Assembly (NCBI RefSeq): GCF_014237875.1
Contig: NZ_JACJVJ010000003.1
Coordinates: forward strand, 62,001-126,000
DNA: 64,000 nucleotides
Source of the DNA: Parasphingopyxis marina
GTDB lineage: Bacteria > Pseudomonadota > Alphaproteobacteria > Sphingomonadales > Sphingomonadaceae
Reading direction: 5' to 3'
The notes beneath the pieces are model-generated. The model ran no database searches and had not been told where the DNA came from. It saw only the letters and a list, made by a program, of their open reading frames with translations. This document shows, piece by piece, positions 1,543-28,666 of the stretch; positions within the stretch are counted from its first letter, which is position 1, and each line of letters opens with the position of its first letter. The translations under genes and the position numbers were made by a program.

Positions 1543-2214
1543 GTGATTGACGATGCCGGTTTAGTAGAGCGCCTGAAAAGCCTCGATTGCTGCGCGCTTT
1601 CTGACGCGCTCGATAAGCTGGAACTGCAAGGGGCGGTAACGGGTCTGCGCCAGGAATCCGGTGCGGGGCGCATTGCGGGCCGCGCGGTGACCGTGAAGCT
1701 CGACACGGGCTATCCGCCGCCAGGTCCGCCACGTCATCTCGGCACGACGGCCATCGAGATGGCTGGCCCCGATGACGTGATCGTGATCGAACAACGGACC
1801 GGCGTAGAAGCCGGCTGCTGGGGCGGGTTGTTGACGCTTGGCGCTAAGGTGCGGGGCATCGCAGGCGTCGTTGCCGATGGCCCAGTGCGCGATATAGACG
1901 AGGCGAGAAGCCACGGCTTCCCGATCTTCACCAACAAGACGACCTGTCTGACCGCGCGCAGCCGCGTCGTCGAAAAGGCGACCAACGAGCCCATCGAGAT
2001 CGGCAATGTGAAAGTCTCGCCCGGCGACTATGTCGCCGCCGACAACAGCGCCGTCATTTTCATCGGTTCGGAAAATATTGAGCATGTACTGGACACGGCG
2101 GAAGCGATTGCGGCGCGGGAGGCGGCGATGGCGGGCGCGATCGAAGCTGGCACACCGATCAGCGAGGTGATGGGCGGCAATTACGAGCATATGCTTGATG
2201 AGAAGGACGGATGA
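1543..2214 (+). CDS. RraA/LigK-like 4-carboxy-4-hydroxy-2-oxoadipate (HMG-type) aldolase
   Basis: This is a 223-residue RraA-family protein starting at GTG 1543 after a GGATAAGC stretch, 11 bases downstream of the dioxygenase. The class II pyruvate aldolase signature is present: GGLL around 87-90 and then, after the conserved spacing, DGPVRD around 106-111, giving the Arg and Asp that bind substrate and divalent metal. Bacterial family members split 4-carboxy-4-hydroxy-2-oxoadipate into pyruvate and oxaloacetate, the last step of gallate and protocatechuate 4,5-cleavage. With the hydratase and dioxygenase upstream, this gives dioxygenase, hydratase and aldolase in one transcription unit. The gene ends in an ATGA overlap with a second RraA gene. 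RraA-type regulators of RNase E lack the catalytic residues, so an enzyme is more likely here. Confidence 0.82.
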   Translation: MIDDAGLVERLKSLDCCALSDALDKLELQGAVTGLRQESGAGRIAGRAVTVKLDTGYPPPGPPRHLGTTAIEMAGPDDVIVIEQRTGVEAGCWGGLLTLGAKVRGIAGVVADGPVRDIDEARSHGFPIFTNKTTCLTARSRVVEKATNEPIEIGNVKVSPGDYVAADNSAVIFIGSENIEHVLDTAEAIAAREAAMAGAIEAGTPISEVMGGNYEHMLDEKDG

Positions 2215-3875: not shown

Positions 3876-3901
3876 TTTCCTAACTCGAAAGGTCGATGCG
3901 C

Positions 3902-4942
3902 ATGCCCTATCTGATGAACGGCTGGTACATGGCCGCGTTTTCCGACGAGGTCGGGGAGCGCCCTATCGAGCGAACGCTTCTCGATATACCGGTCGTCCTT
4001 TATCGTTTGCCCAACGGCAAGGCTGTCGCTCTGCACGATCGCTGCCCGCATCGCTTTGCGCCGCTTTCCGAGGGGCTTTTGGTCGGAAGCGAGCTGCAAT
4101 GCCCCTATCATGGTCTCCGGTTCGGTGCTGATGGTGCTTGCGTGCACAACCCGCACGGACCGGTGCCCAAATCCGCACGTGTGCGCAGTTTTCCGATACA
4201 CGAGCAATATGGACTCATCTGGTTTTGGCCGGGCGATCCCGAAAAGGCCGATCCCGACATGCTTCCGGACCTGCTGTTTCTCGAGGAAAATGGCGGAAAT
4301 TCAGTAGTTTTCGGACATTTGCACGTCGACGGCAACTATCAGCTCGTCGTCGATAATTTGCTGGATCTGACCCACGCTCCCTATCTCCACCCGCAATTCG
4401 CGGTACCGGGCGTGTCGACCGAAGAGCGGCTGAACCAGACGAAAACCAAACTCATACGCGACGGCGATCGCGTATCGGCAATGCGCTGGCGACCGGACAG
4501 CGAACCCAATGCGCCGACCCGGACGATCTTCGGTTTTACCGACGAGCGCATGGATTCGCGCTCGCACATGCATTGGTATCCGCCGTCGCTTATCCATTTC
4601 GATCTCGGTGCGGCGCCGGTTGGCGGGTCCGAACACGCCGGGCTTTGTATTCCCGCGCTCCACGCCATCACGCCGGAAAGCGAGCTGAGCTGTCACTATT
4701 TCTTTGCCCAGGCGCGCAACGTGAAGCCCGGCGATCCCGACGTGGATCGTGCGCTGCTCGAACTGCTCGACACTGCCTTTCGGGACCAGGACGAGCCCAT
4801 GATCGAACGCCAGCAGCGCCGTATGGGTAGCGTTTCCGATCTGGCCGAACTCGATCCGATTTTGCTGAAGACCGACGCGGCACCTGTCGAGGCACGCCGC
4901 GTTCTTGCGCGCCTTATCGCCGAGGAAAAGGCGGAAGCATAA
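3902..4942 (+). CDS. VanA-like Rieske oxygenase, alpha subunit
   Basis: A 346-residue Rieske non-heme iron oxygenase alpha subunit of the vanillate O-demethylase (VanA) type. The Rieske [2Fe-2S] ligands are Cys48-Pro-His50 and Cys67-x2-His70. The mononuclear iron motif is in DNLLDLTHAPYLH, with Asp155, His158 and His163. Family members demethylate aryl ethers or hydroxylate aromatic acids, using electrons from a separate reductase that is not seen nearby. The start is set at ATG 3902 because AAAGG at 3888-3892 is 9 bases away; the in-frame ATG at 3896 is too close. It is monocistronic or cotranscribed with the GntR gene. VanA-type demethylation is an inference; the Rieske family itself is certain. 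Confidence 0.88.
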   Translation: MPYLMNGWYMAAFSDEVGERPIERTLLDIPVVLYRLPNGKAVALHDRCPHRFAPLSEGLLVGSELQCPYHGLRFGADGACVHNPHGPVPKSARVRSFPIHEQYGLIWFWPGDPEKADPDMLPDLLFLEENGGNSVVFGHLHVDGNYQLVVDNLLDLTHAPYLHPQFAVPGVSTEERLNQTKTKLIRDGDRVSAMRWRPDSEPNAPTRTIFGFTDERMDSRSHMHWYPPSLIHFDLGAAPVGGSEHAGLCIPALHAITPESELSCHYFFAQARNVKPGDPDVDRALLELLDTAFRDQDEPMIERQQRRMGSVSDLAELDPILLKTDAAPVEARRVLARLIAEEKAEA

Positions 4943-6137: not shown

Positions 6138-7406
6138 ATGCTCTCCCACGAAGACAATGAACTGCTGGTCCGGGTTGGCCCGGACACGCCGATGGGGGCA
6201 TTGATCCGGCGCTACTGGATACCGGCGCTGCTCGAATCCGAACTGTCCGAAGCCGATGGCGCGCCCGTGCGAATCCGGCTGCTCGGCGAGGATCTCGTGG
6301 CATTCCGGGATAGCGAAGGCCGGATCGGGCTGCTCGACGAGCATTGCCCGCATCGCCGTGCCTCGCTGGCACTCGGAGTGAACGAGGAGTGCGGCTTGCG
6401 CTGTCTCTATCACGGCTGGAAGTTCGATGTCGAAGGCCAGTGCGTCGATACGCCGACCGAGCCCGAAGGGAGCAAGCTTGCCAAGCGGATGCGCACGACC
6501 GCCTATCCGACGCATAGCGCGGGCGGCATGATCTGGGCCTATATGGGGCCGGCGGAAGCCGTCCCGCCTTTTCCCGAATTCCCGTGGCTCGACATGGCTG
6601 AGGGGCATTCGGTGCCCTTCAAGATCATGGAAGACTGCAACTATGCGCAGGCCGTCGAGGGCACGGTCGATTCGGCGCATGCCGGCGTCCTCCACCGTGA
6701 AAGCCCGTGGACGCACGAAGCGAAATATCCGCACGAAAAAGATTTGCGGCCGAAACTCGAAGTGGAATTCACCAATTACGGACTGCGCTATTGCGCGACG
6801 CGCAAGCTCGACGAAGAGATGATGCACGGCCGCGTTACCCAGGTCGTGCTGCCTTTCTGGACGCTGATTCCGCCCGATGGCGGGCGAGCGCCCGAACATC
6901 GCCGCAACCGCCGCCTCGTCAACGCCTTCGTCCCGCGCGACGATGTGTCCACCTGGCATATCCAATGGTTCTTCGACGAGGGGCTCGAGATCGACGTTCC
7001 GGGCCGCATCGAGGAAGGCGGCATGTGGATGGACGAGAATTTCCGCAAGACCGTGAACATCGACAACTGGTATGAGCAGGATCGCGAGATGATGCGCACG
7101 ACGAATCTGTCGGGCATCAAGGGCATCCTGACCCAGGACCATGCGGTAAGCGAGACGCAGGGGCGGGTCCTCGATCGCACCAAGGAACATCTCGGTAGGT
7201 CCGACATGGCGGTCGTCGCCTGGCGGCGGCTGATGCTGCAGGCGGCGAAGGCCCTCGGGCAGGGCGAATCGCCGTGCGGGACGACTGCACCGATCGACTG
7301 GTCCAAGGTCGTCGCCGAAACCTTCGCCTTCCCCAACAGCTCGACCTGGAAGGACGAACTGCCGTTGCCCGAGGAACTGAAGCCCGAAATTTCGACCGCC
7401 GCCTGA
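6138..7406 (+). CDS. Phthalate 4,5-dioxygenase-like Rieske oxygenase
   Basis: A 422-residue Rieske oxygenase alpha subunit of the phthalate dioxygenase/LigX group. The N-terminus MLSHEDNELLVRVGPDTPMG followed by RRYWIPALL is characteristic of this group. Rieske ligands are Cys70-His72 and Cys89-His92; the mononuclear iron motif lies in VEGTVDSAHAGVLH with Asp178, His181 and His186. The same residue numbers recur in the homologue at 21505. The enzyme would hydroxylate or O-demethylate an aromatic carboxylate and needs an external reductase. ATG 6138 has GGAGAAGG just upstream. The amidohydrolase gene follows 4 bases later and is probably cotranscribed. The substrate cannot be told from sequence. 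Confidence 0.88.
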   Translation: MLSHEDNELLVRVGPDTPMGALIRRYWIPALLESELSEADGAPVRIRLLGEDLVAFRDSEGRIGLLDEHCPHRRASLALGVNEECGLRCLYHGWKFDVEGQCVDTPTEPEGSKLAKRMRTTAYPTHSAGGMIWAYMGPAEAVPPFPEFPWLDMAEGHSVPFKIMEDCNYAQAVEGTVDSAHAGVLHRESPWTHEAKYPHEKDLRPKLEVEFTNYGLRYCATRKLDEEMMHGRVTQVVLPFWTLIPPDGGRAPEHRRNRRLVNAFVPRDDVSTWHIQWFFDEGLEIDVPGRIEEGGMWMDENFRKTVNIDNWYEQDREMMRTTNLSGIKGILTQDHAVSETQGRVLDRTKEHLGRSDMAVVAWRRLMLQAAKALGQGESPCGTTAPIDWSKVVAETFAFPNSSTWKDELPLPEELKPEISTAA

Positions 7407-9462: not shown

Positions 9463-10878
9463 TCAATCCGCGGTTCCCGACGCGCTGCAGGTCGTCCCTG
9501 TTCCCGGCGGGACGGCCGGACCATTTCCCGAGGCCGGTCGGATCGGTCGCGCTTCACCCACGACCTGTCGGCGGATCGCGCCGCCGCTGATCATGCAGAG
9601 GCCCAGGGTGATGGCCACGGTCACGAAGAAGCCGGTCGTCCCGAACATCTCGAGCGAATGAACGCCGGTATAGGAACTCAGCACGGCGCCCAGGCGGCCG
9701 AACGCCGATGCCGAACCGATCCCCGTGGCGCGCGCATCGGGGCCGTACAGGTTGGCGGCGAGCGTATAGAGCGAATTGTGCAGCCCTGCGACGAAGAAAC
9801 CTTCGACCATGATCAAGGCAAAGGTCAGGATCTGCAAATCGGCATTCTGGACCGTCACGGCAAGCAAAACAGCGACGATGCTCCCGCCGCCGCACATCCC
9901 GATGTGCGACCAGCGCGATCCGAAGCGGTCGATCAGCAAGCCGCAAGTCAGGCATCCGATGACGCCGCCCATATGGAAAGCGGTAATGCCCGTGCTCGCC
10001 AGGGTAAGGCTGAAATCCATTGATGAAAGCATCGTCGGTACCCAACTGAATATCGTGTAGCTGGCCAGGAGGCAGGTAAAGAACCCTGTCCATAGCAGCA
10101 GGGTGTCGCGCCAACGGCCGCGACCGAACAACGCGGATAGTGGAGCGCGCGCATGGTGCGCGTCCTCTGCATTGGCAGCGAATTGCGCTCCGGCCGGGGC
10201 CGAAATACCCATCCGCCCCATCAGCGCGACGAGCTGCCCTTGCCGCTTCGGATCGCGGGCCAGGATGCGCGGCGATTCCGGCAGCGTTTTTGCGAATATC
10301 AAGGCCAACATGATCGGCAGCGATCCGGCCACGAGGAACAATGTGCGCCAGCCCCAGTGCGGTAGAACCGAGGCTCCGGCAGCGCCGGCAATAATTCCGC
10401 CGATGGGTATGAATACCATGCCAATGGCTATCCCGCGGCTCCGCCGCCGCAGCGGCGTGAACTCGGTTATCAGTGCCGCGCCGTTGGGAACCGCCGCTCC
10501 GATGCCGAGGCCGTCAAGGAAGCGCACCGCCATCAGCATCTCGATATTCTGGACAAAGGCTCCGGCGGCGGTCATGATTCCGAAAAGCAGGATGGCCAGT
10601 ATCACGCCGATACGCCGCCCGAACCGATCCCCGAGCATGCCGCCCACCACCGTGCCGATTGCAACGCCGGCAAGATTGAGCGCCGCCACCGGAGCGAACG
10701 CCGATCGCGCTACACCCCAGTCCGCGATGAGCGCCGGAAGGGCGATACCGAGGCTTTGATTCGCCAATCCATCCATTGCAAACAGCAAAGCGAGCAGTCC
10801 GAGAACGCGTTTTTGATAGGATGACCAAGGCGCATCATCGACTGCCGTTCCCACGTCAAATTGCTGTTTTTCCGCCAT
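9463..10878 (-). CDS. MFS transporter, AAHS type
   Basis: A 471-residue MFS carrier with 12 predicted helices. Helix 1 carries FAMDGLANQSLGIALPAL, and the loop GDRFGRRIGVI between helices 2 and 3 is the MFS signature. Helix 5 is followed by PESPRIL, common in AAHS and sugar-porter-like members. The C-terminal 40 residues are hydrophilic and rich in Pro, Gly and Ala. GGGGAGAGG lies just before ATG 10878. It is divergent from the TonB receptor at 11027, and the operator-like element at 10948 could control both. Together they would form an outer/inner membrane uptake route for the same aromatic substrate. Confidence 0.85.
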   Translation of the reverse strand: MAEKQQFDVGTAVDDAPWSSYQKRVLGLLALLFAMDGLANQSLGIALPALIADWGVARSAFAPVAALNLAGVAIGTVVGGMLGDRFGRRIGVILAILLFGIMTAAGAFVQNIEMLMAVRFLDGLGIGAAVPNGAALITEFTPLRRRSRGIAIGMVFIPIGGIIAGAAGASVLPHWGWRTLFLVAGSLPIMLALIFAKTLPESPRILARDPKRQGQLVALMGRMGISAPAGAQFAANAEDAHHARAPLSALFGRGRWRDTLLLWTGFFTCLLASYTIFSWVPTMLSSMDFSLTLASTGITAFHMGGVIGCLTCGLLIDRFGSRWSHIGMCGGGSIVAVLLAVTVQNADLQILTFALIMVEGFFVAGLHNSLYTLAANLYGPDARATGIGSASAFGRLGAVLSSYTGVHSLEMFGTTGFFVTVAITLGLCMISGGAIRRQVVGEARPIRPASGNGPAVPPGTGTTCSASGTAD

Positions 10879-15869: not shown

Positions 15870-17024
15870 GTGCCAATTTGCCTCTCGCCTAACGGTAAGA
15901 CCGAATATGCAGGAAGCGCGCCGCCGGACGAGCTGATCGTCGGCACTCTGCGCGGTATCCATTTTTTTGAACGAACCGGCGGCACATGGGAATGCCGGCG
16001 CACGGCGCTTGACCATCTGCACATCAGCGCGCTGTTGCACGAGCCGGAAAGCGGAAAACTGTTCGCGGGCTGCCATGGCTATGGTGAAGCCGGGGGGCTT
16101 TTCGTCAGCGACGATGGCGGCGCCCATTGGGACAAATGCGTCGAGGGGCTGGTGCATGAACATATCTACACGATCGCTGCGCAAAAGCGCCCCGACGGCA
16201 TAGTCCTTTATGCCGGAACCGAGCCGCCGGGACTTTTCCGGAGCGTCGATCTCGGGGCAAGCTGGGAAGAGTTACCGGGAATATTAAAGGTGCCGGGTAC
16301 CGACAAATGGACATTTCCGCCGCCGCCGCACATCGCCCATGTCAAGCAGGTCGCATTTCATCCCAATCACCCCGACACCGTTTATGTTCTCATCGAACAG
16401 GGCGCGGTGCTCAAATCCGAGGATAGGGGAGAAAGCTGGCGCGAACTCGATAGCTATGCCTCGGACGCGGACAGCTTCTATCGGGACGTCCATCGTCTCG
16501 CCTTCGCGCAGAACGACCCTGCGCGGTTGCATCTCGCCACTGGTGACGGGCTTTATCGCAGCGAGGATGCAGGCGAGACCTGGGAGCATCTGCAAGGAAG
16601 GACGGACAGGGTCGGGTATCCCGACGCGTTGTTCGTCGATCCGGACGATGACGATATCGTCTATCTGGGCGGTGCGGGCGATGCGCCGGAAACCTGGCGG
16701 ACGGAAGGCGGGGCCTTTGCCGGTTTCATCGTCAGCGTCGATGCCGGGGATAGCTGGCAGGAAAGAATGGCCGGGCTCCCCGATCCGATCGAAGGCAATG
16801 TCGAGGCCATGGCCATGTTTCACTGGCCCGGCGGCGCCGCGTTTTTCGCGGGCACCGCTGTCGGCGACGTTTTCATTTCCGAGGATCGCGGCGCGCATTG
16901 GGCGTTGTTGACCGGCGGCCTGCCGCCGATCTCCAAGGCGCGTCACTATCGGCATTTCCTCAGCGCAGACGAAAAGGCGCGAATCGAAGGAGAGGCGCGT
17001 TCGGAGGCGGGGAACGCCGCCTGA
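15870..17024 (+). CDS. BNR/Asp-box beta-propeller protein
   Basis: A 384-residue beta-propeller with at least six Asp-box repeats of the S-x-D-x-G-x-x-W type: SDDGGAHW, SVDLGASW, SEDRGESW, SEDAGETW, SVDAGDSW and SEDRGAHW. No signal peptide is seen, so it is probably cytoplasmic, unlike most sialidases. Related proteins are annotated as WD40/YVTN/BNR-like, VPS10-like or photosystem-stability-like; few have known roles. GTG 15870 has GGAGACGG upstream. Clustering with Rieske and flavin oxygenases suggests a hydrolytic, isomerising or scaffolding role in the aromatic pathway, but catalytic residues cannot be assigned. A second, unrelated propeller (NHL type) sits at 22825. Confidence 0.75.
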   Translation: MPICLSPNGKTEYAGSAPPDELIVGTLRGIHFFERTGGTWECRRTALDHLHISALLHEPESGKLFAGCHGYGEAGGLFVSDDGGAHWDKCVEGLVHEHIYTIAAQKRPDGIVLYAGTEPPGLFRSVDLGASWEELPGILKVPGTDKWTFPPPPHIAHVKQVAFHPNHPDTVYVLIEQGAVLKSEDRGESWRELDSYASDADSFYRDVHRLAFAQNDPARLHLATGDGLYRSEDAGETWEHLQGRTDRVGYPDALFVDPDDDDIVYLGGAGDAPETWRTEGGAFAGFIVSVDAGDSWQERMAGLPDPIEGNVEAMAMFHWPGGAAFFAGTAVGDVFISEDRGAHWALLTGGLPPISKARHYRHFLSADEKARIEGEARSEAGNAA

Positions 17025-19678: not shown

Positions 19679-20554
19679 ATGTTCGATAGCCACGCCCATA
19701 TTACGAGCGCCGATTGCGCGCGCTATCCGGCTGCGGGGCTGACCGAGCCGCCTGCGCCGGAAACCTTCGACGATCCACTGACCGCGGAGCGGCTGCTCGC
19801 GCTGATGGATGCCGCCGGGGTCGCGCGCGCGATGGTGGTCCAGAAGATGCACACCTATGGCTTCGATAACAGCTATGTCGTCGATGCCGCGGCGGCGCAT
19901 CCCAAGCGGTTGCGCGCTGTGTGCGGCGTCGATGGACTCTCGGACCGGGTCGGCGACGATGTTCGCCATTGGGTCGGTGAGCGCGGTGCCGTCGGTGTGC
20001 GCATGGCGGCGCCCTGGTCGCGCGGCGAGCCTGTTCCCAAAGGCGATCTGCGTTGGCTGGCGAGCGAAAGCGCGCACCGGGCTTTCGCTGCCGCCGAAGA
20101 TCTGGGCGCTTTCCTCGTCCTCCATTTCTATGCCTGGAACCGCGAAGACGGGCTCGTCGTCCTGCTTGAGCGGCTGAGCGAATTCCGGGAGCTTCCGGTG
20201 GTCATCGACCATATGTCAAATTTCGTGCCCGGCCTCGGGCAGACGCCGGTTGACGATCCCTTGCTGGTCCGGCTGGCCGAGTTTCCCAACGCGGTTCTCA
20301 AATTTTCGACGATCAACCTTTTGCGGTGGCGGGACGCCGGGCACGACGCCGGCGCTCTGATGCAGGCCTTTGTCGGGCTATTCGGCGCAGGCCGGATCTG
20401 CTGGGGATCGGATATCAGCAATTCGCCGGGCAGCTATGACGAGATGATCGCCAGCGCGCAGGCGGCGCTTGCCGCGCTCGATGCGGAAAATCGCGACGCG
20501 ATCCTGTCGGGAACCGCGGCCGGGCTTTGCGGCCGAGCGCCTGCGCGCGCATGA
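19679..20554 (+). CDS. Amidohydrolase-2 family protein
   Basis: A 291-residue TIM-barrel hydrolase. The N-terminus MFDSHAHI gives the HxH metal pair, VVIDHMSNF around 180 the third His, and ICWGSDISNSPGSY near 240-253 the catalytic Asp. The central VGVRMAAPW segment matches the family strand that usually carries substrate contacts. Family reactions include lactone hydrolysis, non-oxidative decarboxylation and hydration. ATG 19679 has GAGGAG upstream. It is the first gene of an operon with a decarboxylase-like protein (ATGA overlap), a Rieske oxygenase and an NHL propeller. The homologue at 7411 is likewise paired with a Rieske gene, which suggests parallel functions. Confidence 0.78.
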   Translation: MFDSHAHITSADCARYPAAGLTEPPAPETFDDPLTAERLLALMDAAGVARAMVVQKMHTYGFDNSYVVDAAAAHPKRLRAVCGVDGLSDRVGDDVRHWVGERGAVGVRMAAPWSRGEPVPKGDLRWLASESAHRAFAAAEDLGAFLVLHFYAWNREDGLVVLLERLSEFRELPVVIDHMSNFVPGLGQTPVDDPLLVRLAEFPNAVLKFSTINLLRWRDAGHDAGALMQAFVGLFGAGRICWGSDISNSPGSYDEMIASAQAALAALDAENRDAILSGTAAGLCGRAPARA

Positions 20555-21486
20555 CCGGCCTGCCACTCACCGTCGCATTGTCCGCCAATGCGTACACCCG
20601 GCCTGTGGTCGGCGGAGAGGTTGCTATCCGCGGAGCCGCGCCCGAGTTCACGGTGCTCCATCCTTCGGAAATGTTCTACCGCCAGCTCCATTTCGCGGAA
20701 TTCGACGTTTCGGAGATGTCGGTTGCCTCGCTTATCATCGCCCATGCGAGCGGCGATCGGCAATGGCTCGCGCTGCCGATCTTTACGATGCGGCAGGTTT
20801 TTCACACCGGCATCCTCGTCCATCGCGATTCCGGAATCGCTGTGCCGAAGGATCTTGAGGGCAAGCGGGTCGCCGTTCCCGAATATCAGCAGACCTCCGC
20901 GATCTGGTCGCGCGGCATCCTTGCCGAGGATCTCGGCGTCGACCTGACCAGTATCGACTGGTTCATGGAGCGCGGCCCTGAGCGCAGCCATGGCTCGGCC
21001 ACCGGCTTCGCGCCGCCGCCCGGCATTCGCCTCCAGACGATCGCGCCGGAAACCAATATCGGCGAGATGCTGGTCGCCGGCGAGCTCGATGCGACGCTGC
21101 TCTACCTTAACGCGCCCAATCTCGTCGATCGCAGCAGCATCGACGTGTCGGAGGTCGCGCGCCCCCTCTTCCCCGATCCCGAGGCCGAAAGCCGCCGTTA
21201 TGTCGCCGAAACCGGCATCATGCCGCTCAATCATTGCCTCGTTGTGCGCCGCAGCCTCGCCGAAACCCGTGCCTGGCTGCCCGGCGTGCTGACCGATGCA
21301 TTTCTGGAGGCCCGGCTACGTGCAAAGGGCGATCCGATCGCGCCCTATGGCCTTGCCCCCAACCGCGCGGTCCTGGAACGGCTGGCCCGCTATATTCACG
21401 GCCAAGGACTGATCGAGCGCCCGGTCGATATCGAAGACATTTTTGCCGCGGAGCCCGCGCTTGCGAGCGCGCCCGGCGCCGCCTGA
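20551..21486 (+). CDS. 4,5-dihydroxyphthalate decarboxylase-like protein (PBP fold)
   Basis: A 311-residue protein with the NMT1/periplasmic-binding-protein-like fold, without a signal peptide, so cytoplasmic. The layout matches 4,5-dihydroxyphthalate decarboxylase (Pht5): FYRQLHFAEFDVSEMSVAS early, then LPIFTMRQVFHTGILVH, DLEGKRVAVPEYQQTSAIWSRGIL, and MPLNHCLVVRRSL late. Pht5 removes one carboxyl from 4,5-dihydroxyphthalate to give protocatechuate. The start ATG overlaps the preceding stop (ATGA at 20551-20554). The phthalate-dioxygenase-like gene 18 bases downstream supports a phthalate-type route, but no cis-diol dehydrogenase is seen in the operon, so a related polycarboxylate is possible. 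Confidence 0.8.
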   Translation: MTGLPLTVALSANAYTRPVVGGEVAIRGAAPEFTVLHPSEMFYRQLHFAEFDVSEMSVASLIIAHASGDRQWLALPIFTMRQVFHTGILVHRDSGIAVPKDLEGKRVAVPEYQQTSAIWSRGILAEDLGVDLTSIDWFMERGPERSHGSATGFAPPPGIRLQTIAPETNIGEMLVAGELDATLLYLNAPNLVDRSSIDVSEVARPLFPDPEAESRRYVAETGIMPLNHCLVVRRSLAETRAWLPGVLTDAFLEARLRAKGDPIAPYGLAPNRAVLERLARYIHGQGLIERPVDIEDIFAAEPALASAPGAA

Positions 21487-21504: not shown

Positions 21505-22812
21505 ATGCTTCGCGCCGAAGAAAATGAACGCGTCACGCGCACCGGCCCCGGCACGCCGCTGGGCGAGGTGATGCGCCGCTACTGGGTGCCGGCCCTGCTT
21601 TCCGCCGAGCTCCCCGAGCCCGATTGTCCGCCGGTTCGCGTGGGCCTACTCGGCGAACAGCTCATCGCCTTTCGCGATAGCGAGGGCCGGGTCGGCCTGC
21701 TCGATCAGCGTTGCCCGCATCGCGGCGCCTCGCTCTTTTTCGGTCGCAATGAGGAATGCGGTATCCGCTGCATCTTCCATGGCTGGAAATTCGATGTCGA
21801 CGGCAATTGCACAGATCTGCCCAACGAACCTGACGATTCCAAAATGAAGGACAAGGTAAAGGCGACGGCCTATCCAACCGCGGAGGCGGGCGGCGTGGTC
21901 TGGGCATATCTTGGGCCCAAGGAGAAGATGCCGCCGCTGGAGAAACAGGAATGGATGACGCTGCCCGAAGGCCATTTCTACTGCACGAAAAACCAGGCCG
22001 ATGCCAACTGGTTGCAGATGCTCGAAGGCGGCTTCGACAGCTCCCATTCCTCTTTCCTGCACCGTCAGCTCAAATGGGCCGAGGGTGAGGCCGGCACGAA
22101 GACGCAAGTGTTCCGCGCCCGATCGACCGCGCCCCGGCACGAGGTCGATGCCAATGATTATGGTTGCTCCTATGCAAGCCTCAGGGCGCTGCCGGACGGC
22201 GAGGACAATTATGTTCGCGTCACGCAGTTCGTCATGCCCTTCCACCAGCTCCGGCCGTTCGAGGGCAAGTACGAACGCCCGTTGATCAGCGGCCATATCT
22301 GGGTGCCGATCGACGACACCCATTGCTGGGTTTACAGCTGGATGCAGGCGAAGGACGGCGGCCCGCTGGATCGCGAATTCATCGAGGCCGAGGAGCGCGA
22401 TGCCGGCCGCAGCCCGGAATTCTTCATTCCAGGCACCTTTCGTTTCAAGCAGAACAAGGACAATGACTATCTGATCGACCGTGAGGCGCAGAGAACCGAA
22501 AGCTTCACCGGCATCACCGGCATTTCGACGCAGGATCAGGCTGCGCAGGAAAGCATGGGGCCGATCGCCGATCGCACGTTCGAACATCTCGGCACGGCCG
22601 ATCTCGCGATCGTCCGGATCCGTCAGCTGCTGCTCAAGGCCTGCCGCGATCTTGAAGAGGGCAGTGATCCGCTGGGTTCGCAAGCCGCGCTCGTGCCGGT
22701 TCGGCCGGCCGAGAAGGTGGTGCCGAAAGACGAAGACTGGCGCAGCGCCCTTGCCGGGGACCTTGAAATGCCCGGCACCGAAAAGGCTGGCGAACTCGCC
22801 GCCGCGAAATAG
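21505..22812 (+). CDS. Phthalate 4,5-dioxygenase-like Rieske oxygenase
   Basis: A 435-residue Rieske oxygenase alpha subunit, homologous along its length to the protein at 6138 (GPGTPLG and RRYWVPALL near the start). Rieske ligands are Cys70-His72 and Cys89-His92; mononuclear iron ligands Asp178, His181 and His186 lie in LEGGFDSSHSSFLH. ATG 21505 has GAAGGAGAA upstream. It sits between the decarboxylase-like gene and the NHL propeller in one operon. It probably dihydroxylates or demethylates an aromatic carboxylate in the cytoplasm. No reductase or ferredoxin partner is encoded nearby, so electrons must come from elsewhere in the genome. Confidence 0.88.
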   Translation: MLRAEENERVTRTGPGTPLGEVMRRYWVPALLSAELPEPDCPPVRVGLLGEQLIAFRDSEGRVGLLDQRCPHRGASLFFGRNEECGIRCIFHGWKFDVDGNCTDLPNEPDDSKMKDKVKATAYPTAEAGGVVWAYLGPKEKMPPLEKQEWMTLPEGHFYCTKNQADANWLQMLEGGFDSSHSSFLHRQLKWAEGEAGTKTQVFRARSTAPRHEVDANDYGCSYASLRALPDGEDNYVRVTQFVMPFHQLRPFEGKYERPLISGHIWVPIDDTHCWVYSWMQAKDGGPLDREFIEAEERDAGRSPEFFIPGTFRFKQNKDNDYLIDREAQRTESFTGITGISTQDQAAQESMGPIADRTFEHLGTADLAIVRIRQLLLKACRDLEEGSDPLGSQAALVPVRPAEKVVPKDEDWRSALAGDLEMPGTEKAGELAAAK

Positions 22813-22824
22813 GGGAGAGAAGCC

Positions 22825-23691
22825 ATGACGCTGCAATTTGGCGACGGCGAGTATCGTTACGAACTTGTCGAGGGATGGGGGCGACTGCCCGATGACTGGA
22901 GCTTCATGCAAGTCGCCGGCATCGCCGTGGATTCGCAGGACCGGGTTTACGCCTTCCATCGCGGCATGCATCCGTGCATCGTATTCGATCGCGAGGGCAA
23001 TGTGCTTTCCGGATGGGGCGACGGCCAGCTCGCCGAGGCGCACGGCCTGTATATCGACAGGGACGACAATGTCTTCTTCGTCGATCGCGGCGCGCACACG
23101 ATCGAGAAATTCTCGACCGAAGGCGAAAAGCTGCTGACCGTCGGCGAGCGCTGGCAGTGCGCGCCCAAGTTCAGCAACCTGCCTTTCAACCGGCCGCAGG
23201 GCGTCGCCACCGCGCCGAACGGGGATATTTATGTCGCCGACGGCAAGTGCAATAACGCGATCCACTGGTACAACCCTCAGGGCGAGCACATAAAATCCTG
23301 GGGCAAGGAGGGGACGGGCCCCGGCGAATTCAACGAGCCCCATGGCATGTGGATTAAGGAAGACGGCACGGTGATGGCTGTCGATCGTGGTAATGACCGG
23401 ATCCAGTTTTTCTCACCCGATGGCGAATATCTTTATTCATGGGACGGCCTGAGCCATCCCGATCATATCTATATCGGCCCGGACGGCACGATCTACATTA
23501 CCGAGATCGACTCCCACAGTGTCAGCATCTGGAACGATGCGGGCGAACTCCAAACGCGCTGGGGTGGGGAGCGCACCGACAAGCCCGGATTGTTCTGCGG
23601 CCCGCACGGCATCTGGGCCGATTCGCACGGCGATCTTTATGTCAGCGAGGTGCTGACCGGGCGGCGCGTGCAGAAATTCCGGCGCTTATAG
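22825..23691 (+). CDS. NHL-repeat beta-propeller protein
   Basis: A 288-residue protein built of about six NHL-type blades with repeated [IV]xVDxxDxVYV-like strands, e.g. AGIAVDSQDRVYAF, HGLYIDRDDNVFFVDRG, QGVATAPNGDIYVADG, HGMWIKEDGTVMAVDRG and HGIWADSHGDLYVSEV. No signal peptide is present, so it is cytoplasmic. Bacterial relatives include SMP-30-like lactonases and lyases as well as binding propellers; conserved His residues at HG starts and DRG turns could line a central metal site. It is the last gene of the amidohydrolase/decarboxylase/Rieske operon, 12 bases after the oxygenase, with GGGGAGAGAA before ATG. A lactonase or similar role is a guess. Confidence 0.75.
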   Translation: MTLQFGDGEYRYELVEGWGRLPDDWSFMQVAGIAVDSQDRVYAFHRGMHPCIVFDREGNVLSGWGDGQLAEAHGLYIDRDDNVFFVDRGAHTIEKFSTEGEKLLTVGERWQCAPKFSNLPFNRPQGVATAPNGDIYVADGKCNNAIHWYNPQGEHIKSWGKEGTGPGEFNEPHGMWIKEDGTVMAVDRGNDRIQFFSPDGEYLYSWDGLSHPDHIYIGPDGTIYITEIDSHSVSIWNDAGELQTRWGGERTDKPGLFCGPHGIWADSHGDLYVSEVLTGRRVQKFRRL

Positions 23692-23796
23692 AGACGGGCC
23701 GCCGCGCTTCGCCTTTCGCCGGTCGAGCCACCAGATGATCGCGGTTACGACGGTGGCGATTAGGATCGGTGTGCCGTCGGTCATCAGGTTAAACAT
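23686..23796 (-). CDS. Single-helix membrane microprotein downstream of DoxX
   Basis: A 36-residue open frame that begins MFNLMTDGTPILIATV, continues as one hydrophobic helix ending IIWWLDRRKAKRGG and stops at 23686. The layout (short polar start, ~16-residue hydrophobic stretch, Trp-Trp and then an Arg/Lys-rich tail) is that of a single-pass inner-membrane protein with a cytoplasmic C-terminus. GAGGAGAAG lies just before its ATG at a good distance, and it overlaps the DoxX stop by 8 bases, suggesting coupled translation. Its own stop overlaps the end of the convergent NHL gene. A similar micro-gene follows the DoxX-like gene at 28181. Confidence 0.6.
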   Translation of the reverse strand: MFNLMTDGTPILIATVVTAIIWWLDRRKAKRGGPSL

Positions 23797-24232
23797 CGGC
23801 TTCTCCTCTCCGCCAGGCGGGTGCGGGCTGCGCGCGCGCGACGAGCATCGGCCGGAAATAGCCGAAATAGCAAAGCAGCAGCGCGATATTGACGCCGAGC
23901 TCGAGCGGCCCGCTGACCAGTTGGCGCGGCGTGCCGACGATCAGCGTGTTGAGGTAGAAAATCATGGCCGATACCGGCATTTCGAGAACGAGCAGCATTG
24001 GAACGAGCCGGTTTGCCAGCAGGCCTGCGCCAACGACGATTTCCAGAACCTTGATAATCGGGAACAGACCCATGGCGTATAGCGAGTCGATGAACGGACC
24101 GCCGATCGGGTGCGGCACCTGCGGCTGCGCTTGGAACTCCACGAAATAGCGCACGCCCGAATAGAAAAGATGGACGCCGAACCATAGTCGCAGCCACATA
24201 ATCGCGTAGTGGTCCCAGCCTTTCCTCTCCAT
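23789..24232 (-). CDS. DoxX-family membrane protein
   Basis: A 147-residue membrane protein with four predicted helices. It begins with an amphipathic DHYAIMWLRLWFGVHLFYSGVRYF helix; later helices are FPIIKVLEIVVGAGLLANR, MLLVLEMPVSAMIFYLNTL and ELGVNIALLLCYFGYFRPM. The LEIVVGAGLL and GYFRPM segments are shared with the protein at 28181 (AEIVVGLSLLAGR, CYFDHYRPL), so the two are paralogues of the DoxX type. ATG 24232 has AGGGAGAG before it. It is divergent from the TAXI-esterase gene at 24355 and is followed by a membrane microprotein. Role unknown; a redox or transport accessory function is possible. Confidence 0.75.
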   Translation of the reverse strand: MERKGWDHYAIMWLRLWFGVHLFYSGVRYFVEFQAQPQVPHPIGGPFIDSLYAMGLFPIIKVLEIVVGAGLLANRLVPMLLVLEMPVSAMIFYLNTLIVGTPRQLVSGPLELGVNIALLLCYFGYFRPMLVARAQPAPAWRRGEADV

Positions 24233-24354: not shown

Positions 24355-27006
24355 ATGATGAGCATGGTCCGATTGCTGCCATTGGCGTTCGCCCTGTTAT
24401 GGCTGGGCGGTCTTTCTCCCGCAATTGCGCAGGAGCAGCCCGCAGAAGGCGAATTGGGCCGCACCATCGATGTCGGCGAGACCGGTTACGATGTGCGGCG
24501 GCTGGTAATGGCGTCGGCCTGTCCGCATGCCTGCCCGTGGGGCGAGCTTGGCGAGTTCGTCCGCGATGCGATGGCGCCGCTCGATTACGAGATCGTGTTG
24601 TGCCGCAACTGCAACCGGATTTACGGCCCGCCGCTGGTCGCGCGCGGCGAAAGGCCGCCGCCGCTCGACCGGATCAACCTTGCGACCGGCACCACCGAAC
24701 GCGTCGATGCCCCGGTCGATTTCGGTGTCACCGAAAGCGGGATGCTCGACCAGGCCTATCTGGGGGAAGGGATTTATGCCGAGGAAGGGCGGTTTCCCAA
24801 CCTTCGCCTGATTGCGAAGCTGGAGGACCCGACCTATCTGCTCGTCGCGGTACGGGCGGATTCCGGCATTACGGACCTTGCACAGCTCGCGGCGCTGGAC
24901 AGGCCGCTGCGCATCCTTTCCGATTTTCAGGGAGCCGCCGATGCGGTGCTCGCGCATTACGGGCTCGACCGCGAAAGCGTCGAAAGCCGTGGCGGGTCCA
25001 TCGAGTTTTTCATGCGGGCCGATGCGGATACGCCTTTCGATCTTGTCGTCAGCGCGCTTGGCAGTTCGGCCAACAATCTCGAATCGCGGCCCTGGACGGC
25101 ATTGAGCGAAGCGCATGATTTGCGGTTTCTCGATTTGCCCGAAGAGCTGATCGCGAACATTATCGCGGACGGTCGCGCGCAGCCGGTTACCATGCGCTGG
25201 GGCTATTTGCGCGGTGTCGACCATCCGGTGCGCACGGTGGGGCGGTCCGGTGAGGCGATCTTCGCGCGCGCGGATATGCCCGATGACATCGCCTATGATC
25301 TTGCCCGCGCGATTGACGGCGCGCGCACCGATCTGCGCTGGTTCGTCCGGCCCTATTCCTATGATCCGCAAACCGCGTGGCGGAATTTCAGCGTACCGCT
25401 CCATCCCGGCGCGGCGCGTTACTATCAGGAGCTGGGCTATATGGACGAGAGCGAACCGCCTGCCGCCGCGAATATCGAGGTCGAAACGAGCCTCGGCAGG
25501 GTTTCGGGAGTGGGCGAAGAAGGACTAGCGGTTTTCCGCGGCATTCCCTTCGCCGCGCCGCCGGTCGGGTCGAATCGCTGGCGCGCGCCGCAGCCCGCTC
25601 AGCCTTGGCCGGGCGTGCGTGTGGCCACCGAATTCGCGCCCGCCTGTCCGCAGCCCGATCAGCGCGAAAGTGCCGTCTTCGAGCGGCACTCCCTCCGGCA
25701 GAGCGAGGATTGCCTGTACCTTAACATCTGGACCCCGGCCGAGGCGCCCGATGCACGCCTCCCCGTGATGGTCTGGATCTACGGCGGCGGTTTCAACAAC
25801 GGCGCGACGTCCCTTCCGACCTATTCGGGCGAAAACCTTGCGGCGCGCGATGTGATCGTCGTTTCGATCGCCTATCGGATCGGCGCCTTCGGCTTCCTGG
25901 CGCATCCCGCTCTCACCACCGAGGCATCGGATGGCAGCTCGGGAAATTACGGCCTGCTCGACATGATCGCGGCGCTCCAATGGGTGAATGAGAATATCGC
26001 TGGTTTCGGCGGCGATCCAAATAACGTTACGATCTTTGGCGAATCGGCGGGCGGTATCGCTGTTTCGATACTCGCTGCCTCGCCGCCGGCGCGTGGACTT
26101 TTCCAGCGTGCAATCAGCCAGAGCGGAGGCTCCTTTGCGCCACCGCGCACGGCCAATGAGGGCGGCAGCAACGTCCCGACCTTGGTCGTTGCAGAAGCCC
26201 ATGGAGAACGTTTGTTCGAGACCCTTGGCGTGGATACTCTCGCCGAAGCGCGGGCCGTTCCGGTCGAGGCAATTCTCGATGCCGTTGGCCCGGCGATACC
26301 CGGCAACCTCTTCTGGCCGGTTCTCGACGGCGTGGTAATTCCCGACGACCAGTACGAACTGTACGCGGACGGTGCCTTTAACGACACGCCCATCCTCGTC
26401 GGGACGAACGATGACGAGGGGGCGCTCTTTGTGCCGCAGGGCCCGCCGGCCGAACGCTATATCGGGGGCGTGCGCGCGGGCTTTGGCGAGCATGCCGACG
26501 CGGTCCTCGAGACGTATTCCGGCGGAACCGATGCCGAGGCGCTGCGCTCGAGCCGTGATCTCTTTCGCGATACCGCGTTCGCCTGGCACACATGGACATG
26601 GGCGAGACTGCAAGCCGAAGCGGGAGGTAGCCCGGCCTTTGTCTATTATTTCGAGCAGCGCCCACCCTATCCCGACATTCCGATGCTCGCCGACTGGGGC
26701 GCTGCCCATGCGATGGAATTGCCCTATGTTTTTGGCACGTTACGGCCTGGACGAATGGACTGGCGTGACGGCGACAGACACGTTTCCGATCTTATGATCG
26801 GCTATTGGACGAACTTCGCCAAGACCGGCGATCCCAATGGCGAGGGCCTTCCCGAATGGCCGCGTTTTACACCAGACGCGCAACAGGTCCTGTATATCGA
26901 CGAAACGCCGCACGCCGGATCCGTGCCCAATTCCGAACAGCTCGAAACGCTCGACAGCTACTATCGTTGGCGGCGTGAGCAGCGGGCCCACGAGCAATCC
27001 CGATAA
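24355..27006 (+). CDS. Exported fusion: TAXI-type solute-receptor domain plus type-B carboxylesterase
   Basis: An 883-residue protein in one unbroken frame with an AAGGAGAGG ribosome site. Residues 1-25 are a signal peptide (cleavage near AIAQ). Residues ~40-365 resemble a TAXI-family TRAP solute receptor: DFGVTESGMLDQAY, LVAVRADSGITDLAQL, and a C-terminal AIFARADMPDDIAYDLARAID then PLHPGAARYYQELGYM. A Cys pattern C56-x3-C60 and C83-x2-C86 is unusual for the family. Residues ~372-875 are a type-B carboxylesterase: FRGIPFAAPPVG, EDCLYLNIW, an oxyanion YGGGF, GESAGG with nucleophile Ser564, DDEG with Glu688 and AAH with His785. A periplasmic enzyme that binds and hydrolyses an ester is inferred. 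No TRAP permease genes are nearby. Confidence 0.85.
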   Translation: MMSMVRLLPLAFALLWLGGLSPAIAQEQPAEGELGRTIDVGETGYDVRRLVMASACPHACPWGELGEFVRDAMAPLDYEIVLCRNCNRIYGPPLVARGERPPPLDRINLATGTTERVDAPVDFGVTESGMLDQAYLGEGIYAEEGRFPNLRLIAKLEDPTYLLVAVRADSGITDLAQLAALDRPLRILSDFQGAADAVLAHYGLDRESVESRGGSIEFFMRADADTPFDLVVSALGSSANNLESRPWTALSEAHDLRFLDLPEELIANIIADGRAQPVTMRWGYLRGVDHPVRTVGRSGEAIFARADMPDDIAYDLARAIDGARTDLRWFVRPYSYDPQTAWRNFSVPLHPGAARYYQELGYMDESEPPAAANIEVETSLGRVSGVGEEGLAVFRGIPFAAPPVGSNRWRAPQPAQPWPGVRVATEFAPACPQPDQRESAVFERHSLRQSEDCLYLNIWTPAEAPDARLPVMVWIYGGGFNNGATSLPTYSGENLAARDVIVVSIAYRIGAFGFLAHPALTTEASDGSSGNYGLLDMIAALQWVNENIAGFGGDPNNVTIFGESAGGIAVSILAASPPARGLFQRAISQSGGSFAPPRTANEGGSNVPTLVVAEAHGERLFETLGVDTLAEARAVPVEAILDAVGPAIPGNLFWPVLDGVVIPDDQYELYADGAFNDTPILVGTNDDEGALFVPQGPPAERYIGGVRAGFGEHADAVLETYSGGTDAEALRSSRDLFRDTAFAWHTWTWARLQAEAGGSPAFVYYFEQRPPYPDIPMLADWGAAHAMELPYVFGTLRPGRMDWRDGDRHVSDLMIGYWTNFAKTGDPNGEGLPEWPRFTPDAQQVLYIDETPHAGSVPNSEQLETLDSYYRWRREQRAHEQSR

Positions 27007-27034: not shown

Positions 27035-28141
27035 ATGTCGAAAACGCCTCCGTTCCACGCCGATCATGTCGGCAGTCTTTTGCGCTCTACCGCCGTACAT
27101 CAAGCCCGTGAGAAGTATGCGGCGGGCGAAATCGACTATGCGGCACTCCAGGCGGCCGAGGATGCGCATATCCGCGATCTCATCGCCAAGCAGGAAGAGA
27201 TTGGGCTCAAAAGTGTAACCGACGGCGAAACCCGCCGGGCCGTGTGGTCGACTGATTTTCTTCAGGAATTGGAGGGCATGTCCTTTGCCGAGGAGCAGGC
27301 AAGCTTCGGCGACAAGACGCTGCACCCGATCCGCCATCTCAAGGTTACCGGTAAGCTGGGCTTCTCCGGTCATCCGATGATTGAGCATTTTCGCTTCCTG
27401 GACGCGAATACCAACGCGACGGCAAAAATGACCATCCCCTCGCCGGCGATGTTGGTTTCGCCGCGCAGAAACTGGCGAGAGGTCGTCGATCGGGCAGCTT
27501 ATGACCGGCTCGACACGCTCTATGAAGATCTCGCCGAGGCCTATCGTCAGGCGGTGCAGGCTTTTTACGACGCCGGCTGCCGGTATCTCCAGTTCGACGA
27601 TTGCGCCTTCGCCTTCCTTTGCGACGAGGGAATCCGCGAGGAGGTCACGTCGCGCGGCGATGATCCCAGGGCGCTGATGGAAGGCTGGACCGAACTTATC
27701 AATTCGGTCCTCGCCGCGAAACCGGCCGACATGACGATCACGACCCATATGTGCCGCGGCAATTTCCGTTCCAAATGGTTGGCGCAGGGCGGTTACGAGA
27801 CGATCGCCGACCTCCTGTTCGAGCGGCTCGGCTATGACGGCTTCTTTCTCGAATATGACAGCGACCGCGCCGGTGGATTCGAGCCGCTTCGGCGGTTGCG
27901 AGAGAGCGGAGACCAGGTTGTTGTGCTTGGCCTCCTCACGACCAAGGTCGGCACGCTCGAGGCCAAGGACGACATCAAACGCCGTATCGAGCAGGCGACG
28001 GAATATGTTCCGCTCGATCGGCTGCGCCTCAGCCCGCAATGCGGGTTCGCCAGCACCGAGGCAGGCAATGAGCTTGCCCAGGACGAGCAATGGGCCAAGC
28101 TGAAAATGGTTGTCGATATCGCGGATGAGGTCTGGTCCTAG
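27035..28141 (+). CDS. MetE-like (cobalamin-independent methionine synthase II family) methyltransferase
   Basis: A 368-residue protein of the MetE C-terminal/UROD-like barrel family. It shows HADHVGSLLR at the start, TDGETRR near 62-68, YLQFDDCAF in the middle, THMCRGN with His238 and Cys240, LEYDSDRAG with a Glu near 273, and LSPQCGFAS with Cys336. His/Cys/Glu/Cys are the zinc ligands that activate thiol substrates in this family, and all seem present. Relatives include methionine synthases, epoxyalkane:CoM transferases and uncharacterised methyltransferases. ATG 27035 is chosen because GAGGA precedes it; the frame extends upstream into the esterase gene without support. In a cluster with Rieske demethylase-like genes it may move methyl groups, by inference. 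Confidence 0.82.
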   Translation: MSKTPPFHADHVGSLLRSTAVHQAREKYAAGEIDYAALQAAEDAHIRDLIAKQEEIGLKSVTDGETRRAVWSTDFLQELEGMSFAEEQASFGDKTLHPIRHLKVTGKLGFSGHPMIEHFRFLDANTNATAKMTIPSPAMLVSPRRNWREVVDRAAYDRLDTLYEDLAEAYRQAVQAFYDAGCRYLQFDDCAFAFLCDEGIREEVTSRGDDPRALMEGWTELINSVLAAKPADMTITTHMCRGNFRSKWLAQGGYETIADLLFERLGYDGFFLEYDSDRAGGFEPLRRLRESGDQVVVLGLLTTKVGTLEAKDDIKRRIEQATEYVPLDRLRLSPQCGFASTEAGNELAQDEQWAKLKMVVDIADEVWS

Positions 28142-28180
28142 GTCAGGCCGCATCCGTTGCGGAGAGGCGGAGAAACACCG

Positions 28181-28666
28181 ATGGGCTACCAGAGAATGAT
28201 CTTCATCGCCCGGATGATCCTGGGTATCTTCTATCTCATCAGCGGCCTGAATTGGTATTTCGGGTTCATGCCGCTGCCGAGCATCTACATGCCCGTCGAC
28301 GCGCCCATGAAGCATGCCGTAGTTACCGAGATGATCCGGACCGGCTGGATGTTCCAGTTCGCCAAGACAGCTGAAATCGTGGTGGGGCTATCGCTACTGG
28401 CGGGGCGGGCCGTTCCGCTGACATTGGCTCTGACGGTGCCGCTGGCATTCATCACCTTCATGCTCGACGCGATGATATTCGACGAAATCTGGGGCTGGGT
28501 GTCGGGTTCGACCGACACGGAAACCTTACGGGCGGCCATTGCCGACATGATCATAGGCGGACTGTGCGTCTTGTCGCTCCATGTCTGGCTGATGCTCTGC
28601 TATTTCGATCACTATCGCCCGCTATTCGTGTGGCAGGCGAAGGCAACCGACTGGGGTGGGGCATGA
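28181..28666 (+). CDS. DoxX-like membrane protein
   Basis: A 161-residue integral membrane protein with four helices: MIFIARMILGIFYLISGLNWYFGF, FAKTAEIVVGLSLLAG, PLTLALTVPLAFITFMLDAMIFDEIW, and DMIIGGLCVLSLHVWLMLCYFDHYRPLF. AEIVVGLSLLAGR and CYFDHYRPL align with the DoxX protein at 23789. ATG 28181 follows GGAGAGGCGGAGAA. It lies 39 bases after the MetE-like gene, so it is likely in its operon. Its stop overlaps the ATG of a small membrane protein (ATGA at 28663-28666). Function unknown. Confidence 0.72.
   Translation: MGYQRMIFIARMILGIFYLISGLNWYFGFMPLPSIYMPVDAPMKHAVVTEMIRTGWMFQFAKTAEIVVGLSLLAGRAVPLTLALTVPLAFITFMLDAMIFDEIWGWVSGSTDTETLRAAIADMIIGGLCVLSLHVWLMLCYFDHYRPLFVWQAKATDWGGA

What the first reader, a model, noticed from the sequence alone, without database searches (positions are those of the whole stretch)
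24355..27006. TAXI solute-receptor domain fused to a type-B carboxylesterase
Seen: one 883-residue frame with a signal peptide, a receptor-like half ending near residue 365 (PLHPGAARYYQELGYM is a typical TAXI C-terminus), then a full esterase with Ser564, Glu688 and His785. Known: TAXI proteins deliver ligands to TRAP permeases; type-B carboxylesterases act alone. Inference: a periplasmic enzyme in which a binding domain captures an aromatic ester for hydrolysis, or a receptor that senses and processes it. No TRAP permease gene is in the window. The C56/C60/C83/C86 cluster in the receptor half is another oddity that could bind metal or form disulfides.
Basis: partly seen in the sequence, partly recalled or inferred. 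Interest (0 to 1): 0.78.

Follow-up and report, generated by a model that had tools for sequence, protein, structure and literature searches.

The report
Binding-protein domain fused to carboxylesterase
In one bacterium of the sphingomonad family a solute-binding domain with four conserved cysteines is fused in frame to an ester-cutting enzyme, and in relatives the same two proteins come from neighbouring genes, which suggests a capture-and-cut unit for aromatic esters that works without the usual TRAP transporter.

Summary
Window 24355-27006 (+) is one open 883-codon frame: signal peptide (by eye), a TAXI/NMT1-like domain (Pfam NMT1_3, E 2.8e-21; AlphaFold2 pLDDT 82, best PDB matches TAXI receptors), a linker of about nine residues, and a type-B carboxylesterase (E 8.6e-122) whose Ser564, Glu688 and His785 align with p-nitrobenzyl esterase's triad. 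A frameshift is unlikely: the join falls where stand-alone homologues end, and no intergenic stretch or second signal peptide fits. The TAXI half belongs to a rare subfamily with four invariant cysteines in loops that, by alignment, line the ligand pocket of TAXI receptors. I found five copies in four genomes, all near type-B esterases: fused once (here), overlapping the esterase gene by 4 nt once, two genes away three times; the esterases come from two clades. No TRAP (DctM) permease was found in the window's genome, so classical TRAP delivery is improbable. Nearby genes include a phthalate-4,5-dioxygenase-like Rieske protein and a 4,5-dihydroxyphthalate-decarboxylase-like protein, but these are not shared by the relatives' clusters. 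Best reading: a periplasmic unit in which the TAXI domain holds an aromatic ester or its acid product beside the esterase. Ligand and substrate are untested; a Cys4 metal or redox role remains open.

The parts
24355..27006 (+). Fusion gene, 883 aa: signal peptide (about residues 1-26), TAXI-like domain, linker, type-B carboxylesterase
   Evidence: Open frame; Pfam and NCBIfam; signal peptide by eye
24493..25446 (+). TAXI/NMT1-like domain, residues 47-364
   Evidence: NMT1_3, AlphaFold2 and Foldseek, stand-alone homologues ending at the same residue
24520..24612 (+). Cysteines 56, 60, 83 and 86, in the beta1-alpha1 loop and at and just after the end of beta2
   Evidence: Invariant in 5 of 5 copies; places in the model
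25447..25473 (+). Linker, about residues 365-373
   Evidence: Alignment with stand-alone homologues and COesterase start at 375
25477..26940 (+). Type-B carboxylesterase domain, residues 375-862
   Evidence: PF00135, E 8.6e-122
26044..26046 (+). Ser564, GESAG nucleophile
26416..26418 (+). Glu688 of the triad
26707..26709 (+). His785 of the triad
23789..24232 (-). Small protein gene that looks like a DoxX-type membrane protein, homologous to the gene beside the TAXI gene in MD-1, G270 and G1072
   Evidence: 54-59% identity; no Pfam match, so the name is by eye
21505..22812 (+). Rieske oxygenase of the phthalate 4,5-dioxygenase / LigXa kind
   Evidence: Pfam; PDB 7fhr 'Putative Phthalate 4,5-dioxygenase', 6e-96; best row 9ina, named only as a Rieske protein
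20527..21486 (+). Relative of 4,5-dihydroxyphthalate decarboxylase
   Evidence: PDB 9jp7, 4.5e-46
9463..10878 (-). MFS transporter, aromatic acid/H+ symport type, shared with the relatives' clusters
   Evidence: TIGR00895 287 bits, below cut-off 418.55; 55-57% identity
11027..13891 (+). TonB-dependent receptor, shared with the relatives' clusters
   Evidence: Pfam; 34-37% identity

Best explanation
A genuine in-frame fusion of two exported proteins that elsewhere are separate products of linked genes. A divergent four-cysteine TAXI-type binding domain is joined to an apparently intact type-B carboxylesterase. Probable mechanism: a TonB receptor brings an aromatic ester into the periplasm; the TAXI domain holds the ester, or the carboxylate released from it, close to the esterase; the esterase cuts the ester; the acid enters the cytoplasm, perhaps by the MFS symporter, and is handled by the Rieske, decarboxylase and ring-cleavage genes nearby. 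Shown by sequence: the fusion, the domain identities, the triad by alignment, the linkage of the pair in five of five copies, and no DctM found in the genome. Inferred: export, ligand, substrate, capture and hand-over.
For: Open frame and domains; TAXI fold; triad; clean join. Linkage: TAXI and type-B esterase in one gene row, two genes between, in MD-1 (G408), G270 and G1072, and overlapping by ATGA in a second G1072 locus. The fused esterase is of another clade than the esterases of those four loci, so the pairing was made or remade with different esterases. No DctM in G000. Neighbour genes. Papers: TAXI-TRAP uptake of o-phthalate (PMC13040137 and PMC6362003, passages).
Against: No binding or enzyme data exist here. 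The fusion was seen in one genome only. The decarboxylase-like gene next to the fusion has no homologue in the 20 kb compared around the relatives' TAXI genes, and no Gfo/Idh/MocA-type dihydrodiol dehydrogenase (the usual middle step; family name recalled) turned up among the window genes I profiled, so a phthalate-ester substrate is weakly supported. The key pocket residues of known TAXIs are changed, so retained binding is an assumption. Other transporter partners such as TctA or GltS were not searched for in the genome.
Confidence: 0.5

Rival explanations
1. The four-cysteine TAXI domain is a metal- or redox-active, perhaps catalytic, domain: four cysteines at the mouth of the ligand cleft bind a metal or cycle between thiols and disulfides and add a second chemical step beside ester hydrolysis.
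For: Cys56, 60, 83 and 86 are invariant in 5 of 5 copies down to 44% identity, with Trp62, Glu67, Asn85, Asn87 and Glu127. By alignment they lie in the loops that contact the ligand in TAXI receptors. Binding-protein folds have become enzymes: a Thi5 (HMP synthase) structure is rank 9 in the fold search, and the neighbour at 20527 is a decarboxylase relative that also matches binding-protein families weakly. TAXI-like genes with no visible signal peptide lie in two Rieske clusters.
Against: An exported protein may simply form two disulfides; VcGluP has one in each domain (PMC11574862, passage). In the second G1072 copy the first pair is spaced CxxC instead of CxxxC. The model gives the loop at 57-59 low confidence, and I had no coordinates to measure Cys-Cys distances. 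No known metal motif was matched.
Confidence: 0.25
2. The TAXI half is a true transport receptor that hands its ligand to a non-TRAP membrane carrier (the MFS symporter or the small conserved membrane-like protein), and the esterase is fused to it because it makes the ligand.
For: TAXI-GltS shows TAXI receptors outside TRAP, with TAXI-GltS fusions (PMC12344293, passages). The MFS gene and the small gene at 23789 accompany the TAXI gene in all three other cluster loci of the close copies.
Against: No MFS carrier that depends on a binding protein is known to me (recalled). In the window the MFS gene lies about 13.5 kb away. The small gene has no Pfam match. For the second G1072 copy no homologue of either gene was met in the 19 kb compared.
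Confidence: 0.15
3. A classical TRAP receptor that uses a permease encoded elsewhere.
For: It is a TAXI-like domain by profile and fold; MD-1 (G408) has one DctM gene, about 346 kb from its TAXI gene.
Against: No DctM match in G000, held as 100% complete, with positive controls; none in G270, though that genome is only 78% complete.
Confidence: 0.03
4. Assembly or sequencing artefact joining two genes.
For: Seen in one assembly only; none of the other nine genomes of the genus searched has the TAXI half (five of the nine are below 91% completeness).
Against: In-frame join with no intergenic stretch and no second signal peptide, which a base error cannot remove. Both halves keep their conserved residues.
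Confidence: 0.03

Closest known systems
TAXI solute-binding proteins of TRAP transporters (VcGluP, TtGluBP)
   Same: Profile match, two-lobed fold, export, typical C-terminus
   Different: Below the curated TAXI cut-off, four cysteines in the pocket loops, key Tyr45 and Gln93 replaced (by alignment), a roughly 21-residue insertion, no TRAP permease, an enzyme at the C-terminus
TAXI-GltS of Bordetella pertussis (BP0403/BP0402) and TAXI-GltS fusions
   Same: TAXI receptor outside TRAP, linked to and sometimes fused with its partner (PMC12344293, passages)
   Different: Partner there is a membrane symporter; here it is a secreted hydrolase
Type-B carboxylesterases (pNB esterase 1qe3, PU-degrading 8wdm, fumonisin esterase 8s6d)
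   Same: Whole domain, triad, GESAG motif
   Different: Normally alone with its own signal peptide; here preceded by a binding domain
TAXI-TRAP for o-phthalate (opaL/opaN of Pseudomonas sp. PTH10; denitrifiers)
   Same: TAXI protein beside Rieske oxygenase genes for aromatic acids (PMC6362003, PMC13040137, passages)
   Different: Here no TRAP permease, but TonB and MFS genes and a fused esterase
tctA_ar, a TTT permease gene beside esterase genes
   Same: Binding-protein-dependent transport gene beside esterases (PMC5812351, passages)
   Different: A permease of another family, not a TAXI domain, and not fused

Membership tests
TAXI solute-binding protein | Pfam NMT1_3 above gathering score | tested here: met
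   76.8 bits, cut-off 27
TAXI solute-binding protein | NCBIfam TIGR02122 above curated cut-off | tested here: not met
   63.3 bits for the fusion and 66.9 for the half alone, cut-off 84.35
TAXI solute-binding protein | TAXI fold | tested here: met
   Seven best PDB rows are TAXI-type, TM-score 0.52-0.63 over the query
TAXI solute-binding protein | Tyr45 and Gln93 (VcGluP) in the pocket; found in 78% and 54% of TAXIs in PMC11574862 | tested here: not met
   Pro61 and Glu127 by alignment through L020; VcGluP numbering placed by me on a related chain
TAXI solute-binding protein | TRAP membrane component (DctM) to serve | tested here: not met
   0 matches in G000
TAXI solute-binding protein | Binds a small ligand | not testable with these tools
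   No assay
Type-B carboxylesterase (PF00135) | Whole-domain profile match | tested here: met
   Profile positions 4-511 of 515, 408.1 bits
Type-B carboxylesterase (PF00135) | Ser/Glu/His triad | tested here: met
   S564, E688, H785 aligned with 1qe3
Type-B carboxylesterase (PF00135) | Esterase activity | not testable with these tools
   No assay
TAXI-GltS system | GltS gene adjoining or fused | tested here: inconclusive
   No GltS among the window genes profiled, which are not all of them; the genome was not searched for GltS
o-Phthalate 4,5-dioxygenase pathway (context) | Dioxygenase, dihydrodiol dehydrogenase and decarboxylase genes together | tested here: inconclusive
   Dioxygenase-like and decarboxylase-like found; no dehydrogenase met among the window genes profiled

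The most novel reading that the evidence does not exclude
The four-cysteine TAXI domain is a new kind of periplasmic module, a binding-protein fold with a Cys4 metal or redox centre in its cleft, that works as the standing partner of type-B carboxylesterases and has left membrane transport altogether.
Probability: 0.2. Interest if true: 0.8.

Novelty: new variant of a known kind. Interest (0 to 1): 0.56.

Why it matters
TAXI proteins are known as receptors that feed membrane transporters. A subfamily that stays with a secreted hydrolase (fused, overlapping, or in one gene row), here in a genome where no TRAP permease was found, would show such receptors serving an enzyme instead. The fusion is also a ready one-polypeptide construct for testing whether a binding domain speeds hydrolysis of scarce aromatic esters, which bears on the breakdown of plasticisers and polyesters.

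Tried and rejected
Frameshift or artefact: rejected on the clean in-frame join. Classical TRAP receptor: rejected. A second fusion in G138 (open frame 959 aa): rejected, since the esterase there begins with its own signal-peptide-like stretch and the frame upstream is merely open. Of the 34 matches listed (E <= 1e-100, 347 genomes) only that one and the window's own have an open frame of 850 aa or more. Of the ten loci printed, six were read in the right frame (L034-L039, each with a signal-peptide-like start by eye); four (L061, L046, L049, L044) were read on the wrong strand and not used. Of the 8 rows only the window's own frame (901 aa) exceeds 453 aa. Orthology of the fused esterase with the MD-1/G270/G1072 esterases: rejected by the trees (34 rows; 35 rows; the duplicate L049 dropped, two rows added). 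Viral contigs: no relative of the TAXI half, the esterase or L018's protein. Plasmids: 0 of 287 records with a match cover 80% of the fusion; the TAXI half matches 119 plasmid records, all under 60% identity. The full-length structure prediction failed for the esterase half (pLDDT mostly under 50; two esterase rows only), so only the TAXI half is used. Print: searches (1, 5, 10 of 58, 0 and 8 papers listed) showed no TAXI-esterase fusion in titles and abstract starts; of these papers I read passages of PMC5812351, PMC12344293, PMC11574862, PMC6362003 and PMC13040137. Most subscription journals are not held, so absence from print is not claimed. Novosphingobium sp. MD-1 appears in 4 papers (listing only).

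Full report
What is there. Window 24355-27006 (+) is one open frame of 883 codons. Pfam finds NMT1_3, the TAXI-like family, at residues 121-361 and COesterase at 375-862, both well above their cut-offs. NCBIfam's stricter TAXI model matches at E 1.7e-17 but below its curated score. The part before residue 121, which the profiles miss, belongs to the fold too: an AlphaFold2 model of residues 26-365 made from seven sequences has mean pLDDT 82.3 and pTM 0.80, and its seven best PDB rows are TAXI-type structures over 332-346 alignment columns. The esterase half could not be modelled well, but its sequence relation to pNB esterase is clear and Ser564, Glu688 and His785 align with the triad (pNB residue numbers recalled).

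Is the fusion real. Stand-alone homologues of the first half exist in Novosphingobium sp. MD-1 (L017; the unnamed G408, L031, carries the identical gene), G270 (L012/L030) and G1072 (L064), with frames of 361, 373 and 376 aa at 55-61% identity. They stop at the residue equivalent to Asp364; in the window the frame goes on through about nine residues into the esterase. No intergenic stretch and, by eye, no second signal peptide is present in any + frame. A base error cannot produce that, so I take the fusion as real, though it was seen in one genome: of the nine other genomes of the genus searched none has the TAXI half (five of them are below 91% completeness).

How rare it is. With the four-copy alignment, 4 of 397 genomes of a family sample have the four-cysteine TAXI, the own genome included, in five copies (E 1.1e-103 or better); 3 more have only weak TAXI-like matches (1.8e-26 to 3.6e-17) (up to five candidates scored per genome). 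Other samples, which overlap: 2 of 298 (family), 2 of 396 (order), 1 of 385 at E 1e-30 (class, the own genome), 1 of 149 (genus of G408), and 2 of 6 (genus of G270). In these I count strong matches only; searches also list 4, 4 and 1 weak ones. A pattern-based scan of GTDB contigs gave one close hit, MD-1, and five distant ones. Of the five copies one is fused.

The pair belongs together. In MD-1, G270 and the first G1072 locus the order on one strand is TAXI, a small gene (DoxX-like by eye, no Pfam match in the two members scanned), MFS, type-B esterase. A second, divergent TAXI copy in G1072 (44% identity) follows a type-B esterase directly, the esterase's TGA and the ATG that I read as the TAXI start overlapping as ATGA; another hydrolase and a second type-B esterase lie upstream. 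So five of five copies are fused to, overlap with, or lie within three genes of a type-B esterase; the window's genome has four near-full-length type-B esterase matches in 3.3 Mb, the fusion included. The esterase fused in the window groups with esterases of G138, G240, G066, G191 and G268 (7 rows, 99/99 and 100/98), while those of MD-1, G270 and both G1072 loci form another group (4 rows, 100/97). Either the pairing arose more than once or the esterase was replaced; both speak for a working link between the domains.

The four cysteines. C56, C60, C83 and C86 are invariant in the five copies, together with Trp62, Gly63, Leu65, Glu67, Phe68, Asn85, Asn87 and Glu127; in the second G1072 copy the first pair is spaced CxxC instead of CxxxC. 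In the model C56 and C60 lie in the beta1-alpha1 loop, C83 at the end of beta2 and C86 just after it; residues 57-59 have low confidence. By alignment through L020 these are the loops that contact glutamate in VcGluP (PMC11574862, passages): C56 falls on Ser40, C60 on Val44, Pro61 on the key Tyr45, Glu127 on the key Gln93, and C83/C86 just before Ser75. The VcGluP numbers were placed by me on related chains, not read from an alignment with VcGluP itself. The pocket thus differs from known glutamate TAXIs. I had no coordinates, so whether the four sulphurs meet is open; two disulfides are the plain alternative.

No TRAP. A DctM search of three genomes gave 0 in the window's genome (held as 100% complete), 0 in G270 (78% complete) and 1 in G408/MD-1, about 346 kb from its TAXI gene. 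TAXI receptors outside TRAP have a precedent in TAXI-GltS, with fusions (PMC12344293, passages). I did not search the genome for GltS or TctA.

Context. Upstream of the fusion lie a relative of 4,5-dihydroxyphthalate decarboxylase and a Rieske oxygenase close to a putative phthalate 4,5-dioxygenase. Further away are LigB and two RraA-like genes, three more Rieske oxygenases, amidohydrolases, two MFS genes of the aromatic-acid symporter kind (below that model's cut-off), and TonB receptors. The MFS, TonB and small genes are shared with the relatives' clusters, but homologues of the decarboxylase-like gene were not met in the 20 kb compared at L030, L031 and L064, and no dihydrodiol dehydrogenase turned up among the window genes profiled. 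TAXI-TRAP uptake of o-phthalate is reported (PMC13040137 and PMC6362003, passages). An aromatic ester is therefore the likely class of substrate; phthalate esters are one candidate, no more.

Mechanism and verdict. I favour a periplasmic capture-and-cut unit (0.5), with a Cys4 metal or redox domain as main rival (0.25) and a receptor for a non-TRAP carrier third (0.15). The parts are known kinds; I met no description of their combination, of the conserved pairing or of the cysteine pocket in the listings and passages named in Tried and rejected.

Noticed in passing
L065:6206-7186 (G560), L066:6193-7167 (G257), L018:7764-8747: TAXI-like proteins of 323-328 aa without a visible signal peptide; two lie beside Rieske oxygenase genes (LigX-like with a ferredoxin reductase; VanA-like with a dienelactone hydrolase and an XylR-type regulator), the third between a DctP/DctM TRAP operon and a GntR regulator. 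Possibly cytosolic enzymes with a binding-protein fold.
   Followed up: partly
L070:8118-14069 (G1072): Row of two type-B esterases, another hydrolase and a four-cysteine TAXI gene; the last esterase and the TAXI gene overlap by 4 nt.
   Followed up: yes
window 25425-25443: AGGAG, then ATG at 25441 (Met363) eight to nine bases on: a possible internal start that would give an esterase without signal peptide; may be chance.
   Followed up: no
window 3896-4942, 6138-7406, 21505-22812, 61956-63023: Four Rieske oxygenase genes in one window, with three TonB receptors at 11027, 45009 and 59274.
   Followed up: partly
window 1543-2214 and 2211-2864: Two RraA/LigK-like genes that overlap by 4 nt, behind a LigB-type dioxygenase at 536-1531.
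   Followed up: no
window 27035-28141: Methionine-synthase-like (Meth_synt_2) gene directly downstream of the fusion, followed by a weak DoxX match at 28157-28666.
   Followed up: no
window 15870-17024 and 22825-23691: Two predicted repeat/propeller proteins (BNR/sortilin-like and NHL) inside the catabolic cluster.
   Followed up: no
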